Positions 1,516 to 19,695 of a DNA stretch of 37,597 nt are shown here, piece by piece. Position 1 is the first letter of the stretch. Each line of letters begins with the position of its first letter. A model generated the notes under the pieces. That model was not told the origin of the DNA, did not search any database, and saw only the letters and a list, made by a program, of their open reading frames with translations. The DNA is from Conexibacter sp. (lineage in GTDB: Bacteria > Actinomycetota > Thermoleophilia > Solirubrobacterales > Solirubrobacteraceae). Where the stretch lies: contig JAOPZA010000012.1 of the NCBI GenBank assembly GCA_025964325.1, forward strand, positions 1 to 37,597, written 5' to 3'. A program made the translations under genes and the position numbers.

Positions 1516-1729
1516 CGTTTCGACTACTTGCTCTTCCAGAACATTTCGACCTCCTTAGATCGGCGCTGATCTGGGGCCCCGAAGCGCCGACGTTTGGCGA
1601 CCGGCCCGCTCCCTCGTTCAAAAAGCGTAGCCGGTGAATGGAGCTTTTGCAGCATTTGGGGCCCAAAACCTGTGCAATCTTGCGCAGACAGCTCATGTCC
1701 CGGGTCGAAAGGGCCGACCGTGATCGGTG

Positions 1730-2617
1730 ATGCGGTACCTGAAGACCAGCGAGGCAGCCGCGCTGCTGAACGTCAGCCCCAACACGCTGCGCGCGTGGGA
1801 GCGGCGCTTCGGGTTCCCGCGACCACAGCGATCTCCGGGGCGCCACCGCCTCTACACGCACGGCGAGATCGCCGCGCTGCGCGACGCACTGCTCGACGGT
1901 CTCTCGATCTCCTCGGCCGTGTCACGTGCACGCGAAGGCCTCGGGGCCGACACGAACGCGCTCGTCGGCGCGCTCAACGCCTTCGACGGCGCCCGCGCCG
2001 ACGCCGCGGTCGAGGGCGCGCTCGCGTTGCGCTCGCTCGACCGCGCCGTGCAGGAGGTGCTGCTGACCGCGCTCGACGAGATCGCCCGTCGTCACGGCAC
2101 CGATTCGGTGCAGTGGGCGTTCGCCGCCCGCTGGGGCAACGGCTGGCTGCGCCGCGCGCAGCGGCTCGTCTCGCCGTCGATGCAGCCGATCAGAATCGTG
2201 CTCGGCGACGCCTCGCGCGACGACCTCGATCCGGACGCCGCCTACGTGCGCGCGCTCGAGCTGCTCGCGACGCGCTCCGGCGCGACCGTGCTCGGCCTCT
2301 CCGTGCGCGGCGTCGCGAACATGTCCGAGGTGCTCGCGACCCATCGCCCCGACGCCGTCGTGATCGCCGGCTCGGCACAGCCCGACGATGCGGTCGCGCG
2401 CTGGGCCTACGCCGTGCGGCTCGCCACCGGCCCGCTTCCGGTCGCCGTCTTCCGCCGCGGCGCGCAGCGCGCGCGCGTGCGCACGACCGGTGCCGCGATC
2501 CTTCCGAGCACCCCGGGCGAGGCCGCCCGGCACCTGATGGAGCTCGCGACCCACTCGGCCGCGAGTGCCGTGCACCGGACCACGTCGCCCGCACGGATGG
2601 CGGCCGACGGGGCATGA
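1730..2617 (+). CDS. MerR-type regulator with cobalamin-binding-like domain that lacks the B12 ligands (copy 1)
   Basis: Residues 1-70 form a MerR winged helix (NVSPNTLRAWERRFGFP, then PGRHRLYTHGEIAALRDAL). A helical linker (about 75-150) and a Rossmann-like C-terminal domain (about 155-275) follow, the layout of CarA/CarH/LitR photoreceptor-repressors. In CarH-type proteins an E/DxHxxG segment supplies the lower cobalt ligand and a Wx9EH motif contacts adenosylcobalamin. Here the first is DASRDDLDP (160-168), with no histidine, and no Wx9EH is visible. Cobalamin or light sensing is therefore unlikely. The linker carries FAARWGNGWLRRAQRL, which is shared in pattern with the paralogue at 3401. 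GTG at 1727 is an alternative start. A Zn-ribbon/PAS-like gene follows 37 nt downstream. The 238-bp divergent intergenic upstream has no confident -35/-10 for this gene. Confidence 0.85.
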   Translation: MRYLKTSEAAALLNVSPNTLRAWERRFGFPRPQRSPGRHRLYTHGEIAALRDALLDGLSISSAVSRAREGLGADTNALVGALNAFDGARADAAVEGALALRSLDRAVQEVLLTALDEIARRHGTDSVQWAFAARWGNGWLRRAQRLVSPSMQPIRIVLGDASRDDLDPDAAYVRALELLATRSGATVLGLSVRGVANMSEVLATHRPDAVVIAGSAQPDDAVARWAYAVRLATGPLPVAVFRRGAQRARVRTTGAAILPSTPGEAARHLMELATHSAASAVHRTTSPARMAADGA

Positions 2618-4358: not shown

Positions 4359-7300
4359 ATGAGCGCGCCCCACCGTCCCGTCGATTCGCAGCAGTCGTTC
4401 CCAGCGCTCGAGGAGAGCGTCCTCGCGCGCTGGCGCGAGGACGACGTCTTCCCGGAGACGATCCGCCGTCGCGTGGGCGCGCCGCCGTGGGTCTTCTACG
4501 AGGGGCCGCCGACGGCGAACGGCAGACCGGGCGTCCACCACGTGCTGGCGCGCGTCTTCAAGGACATCTTCCCGCGCTACAAGACGATGCGCGGCTACCG
4601 CGTGGACCGCAGAGGCGGCTGGGACTGCCACGGCTTGCCGGTCGAGCTGGCGGTCGAGGCGCAGCTCGGCTTCGAGTCGAAGGCCGACATCGAGCGCTAC
4701 GGGATCGCCGAGTTCAACGCGAAGTGCCGCGAGTCGGTCTTCGCCTACCTCGAGGACTGGCGGCGGCTGACCGAGCGGATCGGCTACTGGGTCGACCTCG
4801 ACGACGCCTACCGCACGCTCGACAACTCCTACATCGAGTCGGTCTGGTGGGCGCTGAAGACGATCTGGGAGAAGGACCTCCTCTACGAGAGCTACAAGGT
4901 CGTGCCGCACTGCCCGCGCGACGAGGTGACGCTCTCCTCGCACGAGCTCGGCCAGCCGGGCGCCTACCGCGACGTGGTCGACCCGTCCGTCTACGTCGGC
5001 TACCCGGTCACGGAGCCGGCCGGCCCGCTGGCGCCCGGCGACGAACTGCTGATCTGGACCACGACGCCGTGGACGCTCGTCTCCAACGCCGCCGTCGCCG
5101 TCGACGCCGAGCTGACCTACGTGCGCGCCCGTGGCGGCGCGCACGCCGCGGAGGCGGGCGCGCAGGAGACGGTGTTCGTGCTGGCGGAGGCGCTCGTCGA
5201 ACGCGTGCTCGGGGCGGGCGCCGAGGTGCTCGAGCGCTTCCCCGGCGCCGCGATCGAGGGCGCACGCTACGCGCCCCCGTTCGACTACATCCCCGGCTCG
5301 GCCTACGGCCCGCGCGGCCACACCGTGCTGCTCGGCGACTTCGTCACGGCCGACGACGGCACCGGCATCGTCCACACCGCGATCGCCTTCGGCGAGGACG
5401 ACTTCCGGCTCGGCGAGCAGTACGGCCTGACGGTCGTCAACCCGGTCAGGCCGGACGGCACCTACGACGAGCGGATCGGCGACTACGCGGGGCGCAACAT
5501 CCGCGCGGCCAACGCCGACCTGATCGAGGACCTGCGCGCCCGTGGCCGGCTGCTGCGCGCGGAGGACTACGAGCACGCCTACCCGCACTGCTGGCGCTGC
5601 GGCACCCCGCTGATCTACTACGCGAAGCCGTCCTGGTACATCCGCACGTCGCAGATCCGTGACCGCCTGCTGGCCGCCAACGAGACCGTCAACTGGCATC
5701 CGGAGCACGTCAAGCACGGGCGCTTCGGCCACTGGCTCGAGGGCAACGTCGACTGGGCGCTCTCGCGCGAGCGCTACTGGGGCACGCCGCTGCCGGTGTG
5801 GCGCTGCGAGCAGGGGCACACGCACGTGATCGGCGGCTTCGACGAGCTGGAGGAGCGCTCGGGCGTGCGGCTCGACGACGCGCACCGCCCGTACGTCGAC
5901 GACGTCGCCTTCCCGTGCGCGCGATGCGGGCAGCGGATGACGCGCGTGCCGGAGGTGATCGACGTCTGGTTCGACTCCGGCTCGATGCCGTTCGCGCAGT
6001 GGCACGCGCCGCACGAGAACGTCGCGCTGTTCGAGGATCACTTCCCCGCCGACTACGTCTGCGAGGCGCTCGACCAGACGCGCGGCTGGTTCTACTCGCT
6101 GCTCGCCGTCTCGACGCTGCTGTTCGACAGATCGTCGTACAGAAACGTCGTCTGCCTCGGCCTGATCCTCGACGGCGAGGGCCAGAAGATGTCGAAGTCG
6201 AGAGGCAACGTCGTCGTGCCGGACGAGATCCTCGACCGCTTCGGGGCCGACGCGCTGCGCTGGTACTTCTTCACCTCGAAGCAGCCGTGGGACGGCTATC
6301 GCTTCTCCGAGGAGACGATCAGCGAGATGGTGCGGCAGTTCCTGCTGCAGCTGTGGAACACCTACGGCTTCTACGTCCTCTACGCGAACGCGAACGGCAT
6401 CGCGCCGCAACCGGCGCCGACGTCCGACCAGCTGTCGAACGATCTCGACCGCTGGGTCCTCTCGCGCCTCGGCGAGACGGTCGCGATCGCCCGCGACCGG
6501 CTCGACGACTACGACGCGACGACCGCCGGACGCGCGATCCAGACGTTCGTCGACGATCTCTCGAACTGGTACGTGCGGCGCTCGCGCAGACGCTTCTGGG
6601 ACGGCGACCGCGACGCCTTCGCGACGCTGCGCCACTGCCTCGTCACCGTCACGCAGCTGCTGGCGCCGTTCACGCCGTTCGTCGCCGACGAGATCTACCG
6701 CAACCTCGACCCCGACGGGGAGAGCAGCGTGCATCTGTGCGACTACCCCGAGCCGGCTCCGCGCGACGAGGCGCTCGAGTTCGCGATGGGCGTCGCGCGC
6801 GAGGCGGTGCGGCTCGGGCTGGCCGCGCGCGGGGCCTCGAAGCTGAAGCTGCGCCAGCCGCTGCGCGCCGCCGTCGTGACCGCGACCGGCCGCGAGCGCG
6901 AGGCGATCGAGCGGCTCGCCGAGGTCGTGCGCGACGAGCTGAACGTGAAGGAGCTGCGCTTCGTCTCGGCCGCCGACGAGCTGGGCCAGGTCGAGGTCAA
7001 GCCGAACTACCGCGCGCTCGGGCCGCGCTTCGGCAAGAAGATGCCGAAGGTGGCGCTGGCGGTCGCCGCGCTCGATCCCGCGCACGTCGCCGCCGCGGTC
7101 CGCGAGGGCCGCACGATCGCGATCGTGCTCGACGGGCACGACCACCAGCTCGGCCCCGAGGACCTGCTGACGGTGCTCAAGCCGCTCGACGGCTACCAGC
7201 TCGAGCGCGAGGGCTCGCACGCGGTCGCGCTCGAGCTGACGCTCGACGACGAGCTGCGGCGCGAGGGCCTCGCCCGCGAGCTCGTGCACGCGATCCAGGC

Positions 7301-7511
7301 AGCGCGCAAGGCCGCGGGGCTCGACGTCTCCGACCGCATCGCGTTGACGGTCGGCGGCGCCGAGGAGCTGCTCGCCGTCACGCGCGAGTACGAGGCGTAC
7401 GTGACGGGCGAGACGCTCGCGACGACCGTCCGCTACGACGGCGCCGGCGCGGGGCAGGCCTTCGAGATCGACGGCCTGCCGCTGCGCGTCGCCGTCGTCC
7501 GCGCCGGCTGA
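4359..7511 (+). CDS. ileS: Isoleucyl-tRNA synthetase, type 2 (IleRS2-like), with GVHH in place of HIGH
   Basis: 1050 aa, the full length of a class I IleRS. It charges tRNA-Ile with isoleucine in the cytoplasm and is essential. The first signature region reads PPTANGRPGVHHVLAR, so the HxGH motif is replaced by G58-V59-H60-H61 (4530-4541). KMSKS is intact at residues 610-614. The tRNA-facing editing (CP1) insert and a long C-terminal region are present. The PTANGxPGxHH pattern is typical of the type 2, eukaryote-like bacterial enzymes. In that group, exchange of the first and third HIGH residues (GxHH) has been linked to very high mupirocin resistance. It is preceded by a -10 box almost abutting ATG and ends 13 bp before the stop of the convergent clpP. 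No second ileS is in the window. Confidence 0.95.
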   Translation: MSAPHRPVDSQQSFPALEESVLARWREDDVFPETIRRRVGAPPWVFYEGPPTANGRPGVHHVLARVFKDIFPRYKTMRGYRVDRRGGWDCHGLPVELAVEAQLGFESKADIERYGIAEFNAKCRESVFAYLEDWRRLTERIGYWVDLDDAYRTLDNSYIESVWWALKTIWEKDLLYESYKVVPHCPRDEVTLSSHELGQPGAYRDVVDPSVYVGYPVTEPAGPLAPGDELLIWTTTPWTLVSNAAVAVDAELTYVRARGGAHAAEAGAQETVFVLAEALVERVLGAGAEVLERFPGAAIEGARYAPPFDYIPGSAYGPRGHTVLLGDFVTADDGTGIVHTAIAFGEDDFRLGEQYGLTVVNPVRPDGTYDERIGDYAGRNIRAANADLIEDLRARGRLLRAEDYEHAYPHCWRCGTPLIYYAKPSWYIRTSQIRDRLLAANETVNWHPEHVKHGRFGHWLEGNVDWALSRERYWGTPLPVWRCEQGHTHVIGGFDELEERSGVRLDDAHRPYVDDVAFPCARCGQRMTRVPEVIDVWFDSGSMPFAQWHAPHENVALFEDHFPADYVCEALDQTRGWFYSLLAVSTLLFDRSSYRNVVCLGLILDGEGQKMSKSRGNVVVPDEILDRFGADALRWYFFTSKQPWDGYRFSEETISEMVRQFLLQLWNTYGFYVLYANANGIAPQPAPTSDQLSNDLDRWVLSRLGETVAIARDRLDDYDATTAGRAIQTFVDDLSNWYVRRSRRRFWDGDRDAFATLRHCLVTVTQLLAPFTPFVADEIYRNLDPDGESSVHLCDYPEPAPRDEALEFAMGVAREAVRLGLAARGASKLKLRQPLRAAVVTATGREREAIERLAEVVRDELNVKELRFVSAADELGQVEVKPNYRALGPRFGKKMPKVALAVAALDPAHVAAAVREGRTIAIVLDGHDHQLGPEDLLTVLKPLDGYQLEREGSHAVALELTLDDELRREGLARELVHAIQAARKAAGLDVSDRIALTVGGAEELLAVTREYEAYVTGETLATTVRYDGAGAGQAFEIDGLPLRVAVVRAG

Positions 7512-7524
7512 CCGCCCGCGGTCG

Positions 7525-8178
7525 TCAGTCCGCCGCCGCTGCGCCGCCGCCGCCGCCGTTGCCGTCCTCGCCGAACCCGAGGCGCGCCCGGCTCACGTCG
7601 TGGCTCTCGATCACGCGGTCGATCAGTCCGTATTCGGCGGCCTGCTCGGAGGTGAAGAAGCGGTCCCGCTCGAGGTCCCGCTCGATCTGCTCGAGCGGCT
7701 GGCCGGTGTGCTGCGCGTAGATCGACTCGATTCGTCTGCGCAGGGCGAGCGTCTCCTCGGCGTGGATCGCGATGTCGGTCGACTGGCCCTCGAAGCCGCC
7801 GGACGGCTGGTGGTTGAGGATCCGGGCGTTCGGCAGCGCCGAGCGTCTGCCCTTCGCGCCGCCGGTCAGCAGCAGCGAGCCCATCGACATCGCGATCCCG
7901 ACGCAGGTCGTCGCGACGTCGGGCTTGATGAACTGCATCGTGTCGTAGATAGCGAAGCCGGCGTAGACGGCGCCGCCGGGCGAGTTGATGTAGAGCGAGA
8001 TGTCCTTGTCGGGATCCTCGGACTCGAGGTGGAGCAGCTGGGCGACGACGAGGTTCGCGATCTGGTCGTCGACGGCCTGGCCGAGGAAGATCACGCGCTG
8101 GTTCAGCAGCCGCGAGTAGATGTCGAACGAGCGCTCGCCGCGCGCGCTCTGCTCGATGACCATGGGGACGAGGGGCAT
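7525..8178 (-). CDS. clpP: ATP-dependent Clp protease proteolytic subunit
   Basis: 217 aa serine peptidase that forms the barrel of the Clp protease with ClpX/ClpC-type unfoldases. Catalytic Ser98 lies in GIAMSMGS, His123 in [11 protein letters not shown] and Asp172 in [11 protein letters not shown], all at the expected spacing; the classical motif would read ASMG rather than AMSMG. INSPGG and the handle region are intact. The C-terminus is a Gly/Ala-rich tail ([12 protein letters not shown]) of a kind common in actinobacterial paralogues. ATG at 8178 is preceded by AGAAGGAGC on the minus strand; the upstream in-frame extension is not supported. It is monocistronic here, without clpX or a second clpP. 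It is divergent from the SRPBCC/ArsR pair, with two operator-like palindromes between them, and convergent with ileS. Confidence 0.92.
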
Positions 8179-8207
8179 GCCGTGCTCCTTCTCTGATGGC
8201 TCACGTT

Positions 8208-19602: not shown

Positions 19603-19695
19603 CGGAGCGGCGAAGGAATCGAACCTTCCAAGCGCCGGGCTACGACGCCCTGCCGGTTTTGAAGACCGGATGGGCCACCAGACCCGTGCCGCTCC
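19603..19695 (-). tRNA. selC: tRNA-Sec (anticodon UCA)
   Basis: 93 nt. The minus strand folds into a selenocysteine tRNA: an 8-bp acceptor stem (GGAGCGGC / GCCGCTCC), discriminator G, a D-arm GGGTC-TGGT-GGCCC, an anticodon stem CCGGT/ACCGG with loop CTTCAAA (anticodon TCA), a long variable arm (GGGC...GCCC), and a 5-bp T-stem GAAGG/CCTTC with loop TTCGATT. The 8+5 acceptor/T arrangement and extended variable arm are diagnostic. CCA is not encoded. It implies that the organism reads some UGA codons as selenocysteine. selA, selB and selD are not in this window, and no selenoprotein is evident here. Confidence 0.93.

What the first reader, a model, noticed from the sequence alone, without database searches (positions are those of the whole stretch)
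4530..4541. IleRS with swapped signature GVHH in place of HIGH
Residues 58-61 read G-V-H-H within PPTANGRPGVHHV. In type 2 bacterial IleRS, exchange of the first and third positions of HxGH (GxHH) has been reported as the cause of mupirocin hyper-resistance. Here it is in the only ileS of the window, in an apparently normal, native context, so the organism may be innately resistant or produce/meet the antibiotic.
Basis: partly seen in the sequence, partly recalled or inferred. Interest (0 to 1): 0.75.

Follow-up and report, generated by a model that had tools for sequence, protein, structure and literature searches.

The report
Housekeeping IleRS2 with swapped GVHH signature
The window carries the ordinary housekeeping isoleucyl-tRNA synthetase of a Conexibacter-like soil bacterium, of a published mupirocin-hyper-resistant type that its whole order shares; the less expected result is a second, divergent copy elsewhere in the genome, inside a conserved gene cluster that looks built to make an isoleucine look-alike.

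Summary
The ileS at 4359-7511 (+) encodes 1050 aa with GVHH at residues 58-61 (4530-4541), exactly where HIGH belongs, and no HxGH anywhere. It is a type 2 IleRS: nearest solved protein is Priestia megaterium IleRS2, and it lies inside the IleRS2 clade. G/AXHH IleRS2 and its mM-range mupirocin Ki were published in 2023 (PMC10485003). The motif is ancestral here: 99 of 99 readable relatives (Solirubrobacterales, Rubrobacter) and 27 of 45 phylum representatives have it, and the gene sits in genus-wide synteny. So innate insensitivity is expected, but it is not a special adaptation of this organism.

The suggested search for a second ileS found one. All seven Conexibacter-group genomes held carry a divergent IleRS2 paralogue (about 52% identical, GSHH/GAHH), absent from eight outgroup genomes. 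In six it follows a tight gene run: keto-acid C-methyltransferase, cupin, DmpF-, DmpG- and DmpE-like enzymes and usually an AlaX-type deacylase. Predicted chemistry gives the keto form of an isoleucine analogue that E. coli IleRS is known to charge. I propose a self-protection or dedicated-charging IleRS for such an analogue (about 40%). Nothing was tested at the bench.

The parts
4359..7511 (+). ileS, type 2 isoleucyl-tRNA synthetase, 1050 aa plus stop
   Evidence: TIGR00392 914.7 bits over cut-off 621.4; best PDB match P. megaterium IleRS2; tree
4530..4541 (+). GVHH, swapped class I signature motif (residues 58-61)
   Evidence: sequence; aligned to the HVGH/GVHH of P. megaterium IleRS2; 99/99 relatives G/AXHH
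5058..5078 (+). TTTPWTL, threonine-rich motif of the editing domain (residues 234-240), canonical here; TTQ/TTM in the second genomic copy
6186..6200 (+). KMSKS, second class I signature (residues 610-614)
1727..2617 (+). MerR-type regulator-like gene upstream, kept in the genus (synteny marker)
   Evidence: 84-90% identical in five genus loci; function from sequence only
7525..8184 (-). clpP-like gene, convergent with ileS (start approximate; synteny marker)
   Evidence: 75-81% identical next to ileS in four of five genus loci compared; ClpP read from its sequence, no family search run

Best explanation
The window gene is the vertically inherited housekeeping IleRS of a Conexibacter-group actinobacterium and belongs to the published G/AXHH subgroup of type 2 IleRS. 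In this subgroup the third-position His takes over the catalytic role of the first His of HIGH, and its bulk clashes with mupirocin, so the organism is expected to be innately insensitive (Ki in the mM range). Shown here: sequence, type, phylogeny, conservation, synteny. Inferred from published work on homologues: the mechanism and the insensitivity. Because the housekeeping enzyme is already of the resistant form, the second, genus-specific GxHH paralogue elsewhere in the genome probably serves something else; its gene cluster suggests handling of an isoleucine analogue (inference, about 40%, see the section on the most novel reading).
For: Sequence and motif. Type 2 by PDB matches (960 bits to P. 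megaterium IleRS2, 378 or less to IleRS1) and by a tree with IleRS1 separate at 100* and the window enzyme among Solirubrobacteraceae at 99*. G/AXHH in 99/99 readable relatives and 27/45 phylum representatives. Genus-wide synteny. Published mutagenesis and Ki values for homologues (PMC10485003). Intact KMSKS and editing motifs.
Against: No enzyme measurement for this lineage; the closest measured GxHH/AxHH enzymes (S. griseus, D. radiodurans) are distant. In TtIleRS2 the swapped motif alone gave only 35 uM, so the level of resistance depends on the rest of the enzyme. With two ileS genes, which copy is housekeeping in vivo rests on phylogeny and synteny, not on knock-outs.
Confidence: 0.88

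Rival explanations
1. The GVHH is a recent, organism-specific adaptation to mupirocin or a mupirocin-like compound that the organism makes or meets (the stronger form of the first reader's reading).
For: GxHH does give mM resistance in tested IleRS2 (PMC10485003).
Against: The motif is order-wide and common in the phylum; the gene is vertically inherited in the housekeeping clade and syntenic. No direct search for a mupirocin cluster was made.
Confidence: 0.04
2. The window enzyme is an acquired or mobile resistance gene of the MupA/MupB kind.
For: Same type 2 family; MupA and MupB models match.
Against: 823 and 776 bits against curated cut-offs of 1900; no plasmid record at 60% identity or more; native synteny and vertical phylogeny.
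Confidence: 0.01
3. For the second copy: it is simply a spare or condition-specific housekeeping IleRS, and the neighbouring Dmp-like genes are an aromatic meta-cleavage remnant that lies beside it by chance.
For: DmpF, DmpG and DmpE families are best known from aromatic catabolism; catalytic motifs of the second IleRS are intact; two IleRS types coexist in some Bacillaceae (PMC10485003).
Against: The same run of genes, tightly packed, is kept in six genomes; the aldolase is a distinct paralogue, about 350 bits beside about 500-bit copies in five other genus genomes; a keto-acid C-methyltransferase and an AlaX-type gene are not meta-cleavage genes; the IleRS has changed at 8 otherwise conserved positions against 0-1 for control clades.
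Confidence: 0.35
4. For the second copy: it donates isoleucine or an analogue from tRNA to a natural product, as SbzA does, instead of serving protein synthesis.
For: SbzA is an IleRS copy in a biosynthetic cluster that transfers Ile from Ile-tRNA to altemicidin (PMC12945691).
Against: SbzA has HYGH and AMSKA motifs, whereas the Conexibacter paralogue keeps GxHH and KMSKS; no acceptor-making genes were recognised among the cluster genes scanned.
Confidence: 0.12

Closest known systems
G/AXHH type 2 IleRS (Streptomyces griseus IleRS2; Deinococcus radiodurans IleRS2 ALHH), PMC10485003
   Same: Type 2 IleRS with first and third signature positions swapped, KMSKS kept, predicted mupirocin hyper-resistance
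   Different: Another lineage (Solirubrobacterales); no kinetics for this enzyme
Priestia megaterium IleRS2 (8c8u/8c8v HVGH, 8c8w GVHH)
   Same: Closest solved structures, full-length alignment
   Different: Naturally HVGH; GVHH only as a laboratory variant (PMC10485003)
MupA / MupB of staphylococci
   Same: Type 2 IleRS linked to mupirocin resistance
   Different: Acquired, plasmid-borne in the records seen, under 40% identical; the window gene is chromosomal housekeeping
SbzA (SB-203207/203208 cluster, Streptomyces), PMC12945691, as comparison for the second genomic copy
   Same: Extra IleRS copy encoded with biosynthesis-like genes
   Different: HYGH and AMSKA motifs and other neighbours; the Conexibacter paralogue keeps GxHH and KMSKS and usually has an AlaX-type neighbour
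MppJ / SgvM / 2-ketoarginine methyltransferase (MrsA), as comparison for the methyltransferase of the second copy's cluster
   Same: Homologous alpha-keto acid C3-methyltransferases; both metal-ligand His of SgvM kept
   Different: Only 107 bits to the 2-ketoarginine model against a cut-off of 425: a relative, probably with another substrate

Membership tests
G/AXHH type 2 IleRS | Type 2 by phylogeny | tested here: met
   Tree: IleRS1 separate at 100*, window enzyme in the other clade; PDB ranking
G/AXHH type 2 IleRS | Gly or Ala at position 1 and His at position 3 of the HIGH signature | tested here: met
   GVHH at 58-61 in register with HVGH of PmIleRS2
G/AXHH type 2 IleRS | Active isoleucyl-tRNA synthetase | not testable with these tools
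   Motifs intact; TIGR00392 over its cut-off
G/AXHH type 2 IleRS | Mupirocin Ki in the high uM to mM range | not testable with these tools
   Needs the purified enzyme
IleRS1 | Clusters with IleRS1 and keeps HxGx in the DGPPYANG context | tested here: not met
MupA / MupB | Above the curated NCBIfam cut-off (1900 bits) | tested here: not met
   823 and 776 bits
Self-resistance aaRS in a biosynthetic cluster (second genomic copy) | Extra synthetase copy besides the housekeeping one | tested here: met
Self-resistance aaRS in a biosynthetic cluster (second genomic copy) | Encoded within a biosynthetic gene cluster | tested here: inconclusive
   Conserved run of plausible biosynthetic enzymes; product unknown
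Self-resistance aaRS in a biosynthetic cluster (second genomic copy) | Less sensitive to the cluster's product than the housekeeping enzyme | not testable with these tools
   Product not known
2-ketoarginine methyltransferase (cluster methyltransferase) | Above the curated cut-off (425 bits) | tested here: not met
   107 bits: homologous, not filed as that enzyme
AlaXM (cluster deacylase) | Above the curated cut-off (300 bits) | tested here: not met
   237 bits: AlaX-type, specificity open

The most novel reading that the evidence does not exclude
Conexibacter-group bacteria carry an apparently undescribed small pathway (keto-acid C3-methyltransferase, cupin, DmpF/G/E-like enzymes, usually an AlaX-type deacylase) that makes an isoleucine analogue such as 2-amino-3-methyl-4-pentenoate or 4-hydroxyisoleucine. 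The genus-specific second IleRS (GSHH/GAHH, TTQ/TTM in the editing motif, changes at 8 otherwise conserved positions) is a dedicated enzyme that excludes, edits or deliberately charges that analogue, with the AlaX-type protein clearing mischarged tRNA-Ile.
Probability: 0.4. Interest if true: 0.68.

Novelty: new member of a known kind. Interest (0 to 1): 0.38.

Why it matters
For the window gene: it extends the published GxHH IleRS2 group to a whole order in which the swapped signature is simply the norm, and warns against reading the motif as the mark of a resistant or antibiotic-producing strain. For the second copy: if the reading is right, it points to an unrecognised isoleucine antimetabolite and a self-protection pair (IleRS plus AlaX-like deacylase) that can be tested directly in cultured organisms.

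Tried and rejected
(1) Recent organism-specific swap: rejected, order-wide. (2) IleRS1 or a hidden HIGH: rejected. (3) MupA/B-like mobile gene: rejected by cut-off, synteny and plasmid search. (4) The second ileS as bin contamination: unlikely, orthologues with the same neighbours occur across the genus and form one clade. (5) 'TTM/TTQ means lost editing': not kept as a claim, because TTMPWTL also occurs in the housekeeping-type IleRS of L048, L071 and L073; TTQ was seen only in the paralogue. (6) The cluster as the only isoleucine route: unlikely, threonine dehydratase ilvA is present in all seven genomes. (7) Cupin structure prediction: too poor to use (pLDDT 58). (8) Rfam: nothing upstream of either ileS reached a gathering score, so no T-box was found. 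(10) Literature: no held paper has Conexibacter together with the other two terms, and no listed title or abstract described this gene combination; only the open-licence library was searched. (11) G008's second copy (L125, 59% identical) looks broken near its 3' end and was not pursued.

Full report
CHECK. The ORF 4359-7511 (+) encodes a 1050-residue protein with G-V-H-H at residues 58-61, codons GGC GTC CAC CAC at 4530-4541, in PPTANGRPGVHHVL. The protein contains no H-x-G-H and only this [GA]-x-H-H. KMSKS (610-614), the TTTPWTL editing motif (234-240) and the editing-domain His/Asp stretch are intact.

WHAT IT IS. NCBIfam calls it ileS (TIGR00392, 914.7 bits, cut-off 621.4), with the MupA and MupB models far below their cut-offs. 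The nearest solved proteins are P. megaterium IleRS2 chains; the top one, 8c8w, reads GVHH at the same place, while 8c8v and 8c8u read HVGH. IleRS1 structures score far lower. A tree of 74 proteins places it inside the type 2 clade with the housekeeping enzymes of Solirubrobacteraceae (99*), IleRS1 being separate at 100* (quick search, SH-aLRT support only). The nearest named isolates are Conexibacter sp. CPCC 206217 and CPCC 205762 at 80% and 78% identity.

HOW COMMON. Among 105 distinct relatives (Solirubrobacterales, Thermoleophilaceae, Rubrobacter), all 99 with a readable motif have G/A-X-H-H. In a phylum sample of 45, 27 have it; the remainder are IleRS2 with HxGH or a near variant, or IleRS1. 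The upstream genes and the convergent clpP-like gene downstream are kept in most genus loci compared. The motif is therefore an ancestral, ordinary trait of the lineage.

MECHANISM (published, not tested here). PMC10485003 showed that the third His of GXHH places its nitrogen where the first His of HXGH acts, and that its bulk clashes with mupirocin. DrIleRS2 (ALHH) has a Ki of 6.6 mM that drops 823-fold on change to HVGH; PmIleRS2 and TtIleRS2 rise about 430- and 175-fold on change to GVHH. IleRS1 does not tolerate the swap. By homology the window enzyme should be active and insensitive. S. [quoted passage not shown] whether this one does is unknown.

SECOND COPY. The whole-genome search found a second full ileS at G000:C29:26336-28882. 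It reads GAHH and is 54% identical to the window enzyme. G000 and G002-G006 have both copies; the 77%-complete G001 shows only the second. Eight outgroup genomes have a single IleRS at the threshold used. A DNA pattern for its HHVLLRSFKD stretch hit only this genus among 299 class genomes, an exact-match test that can miss variants. The paralogue forms one clade (100*) with a long stem (0.56), grouped with another family of the order, so an old duplication or an old transfer are both possible. It departs from 8 positions that are otherwise at least 93% conserved, against 0-1 for control clades: window residues Y47, V127, Y151, T236, G301, V533, G541 and N667. T236 is in the threonine-rich editing motif (Q or M in the paralogue); V533 and G541 lie around the IDVWFDSG motif of the amino-acid site. 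Both copies look to be under purifying selection by a crude count.

ITS CLUSTER. In six genomes the same run precedes it: methyltransferase, cupin-like protein, acylating acetaldehyde dehydrogenase (DmpF-like), 4-hydroxy-2-oxovalerate aldolase (DmpG-like, with its communication domain), 2-oxopent-4-enoate hydratase-like protein (DmpE), AlaXM-like deacylase, IleRS. Neighbouring ends overlap or nearly touch, as in an operon. The deacylase is missing in the window's own genome: absent between hydratase and ileS, and the only AlaXM match elsewhere lies in an 888-residue frame of AlaRS length. The methyltransferase is closest to MppJ, to chains 8ftr/8ftv (depositor name only 'Methyltransferase') and to 2-ketoarginine methyltransferase. 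MppJ, SgvM and MrsA are described as alpha-keto acid C-methyltransferases, and the two metal-binding His reported for SgvM (PMC10502145) appear kept. No relative of it at E below 1e-30 was found in 245 other phylum genomes; it is present in all seven genus genomes, with one in-frame TGA in G001. The cluster's aldolase is a distinct paralogue (about 350 bits), beside better-scoring copies (about 500 bits) in all genus genomes but the window's own.

READING OF THE CLUSTER (inference). Pyruvate plus acetaldehyde would give 4-hydroxy-2-oxopentanoate. The hydratase acting in reverse would give a 2-oxopentenoate, and C3 methylation then the keto form of 2-amino-3-methyl-4-pentenoate; without the dehydration, that of 4-hydroxyisoleucine. 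A general transaminase would be needed. E. coli IleRS charges (2S,3S)-2-amino-3-methyl-4-pentenoate and puts it into protein (PMC12123629). Furanomycin is a known natural isoleucine antagonist charged by IleRS (PMC3662646), and SbzA is a known extra IleRS in a biosynthetic cluster (PMC12945691). An IleRS plus an AlaX-type deacylase next to such a pathway is what self-protection would look like. The product, the direction of the reactions and the enzyme specificities are unknown, and the window species lacks the deacylase; I give this reading about 40%.

VERDICT. The finding is real and correctly read at the level of the enzyme, but known and clade-wide.

Noticed in passing
L118 2935-10534 (G000:C29), with orthologous stretches in L119-L123: Second, genus-specific GxHH ileS behind a run of keto-acid C-methyltransferase, cupin, DmpF/G/E-like and (not in G000) AlaX-type genes.
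   Followed up: yes
L142, L149, L150, L158, L161, L163, L165 (phylum sample): IleRS1 proteins with HAGT, HVGT or HLGT in place of HIGH (Thr at the fourth position), whereas PMC10485003 describes HXGH in all IleRS1.
   Followed up: no
window 19604-19695 (-): Selenocysteine tRNA (Rfam RF01852, 69.5 bits), so a selenocysteine system may be encoded in this genome.
   Followed up: no
L125 (G008:C31): A genome of another genus of the family has a second IleRS2 (GTHH, 59% identical) whose frame appears to shift near the 3' end; pseudogene, assembly error or contamination.
   Followed up: no
L048, L071, L073, L130: Housekeeping-type IleRS of some relatives have TTMPWTL or TTLPWTV instead of TTTPWTL in the editing domain.
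   Followed up: partly
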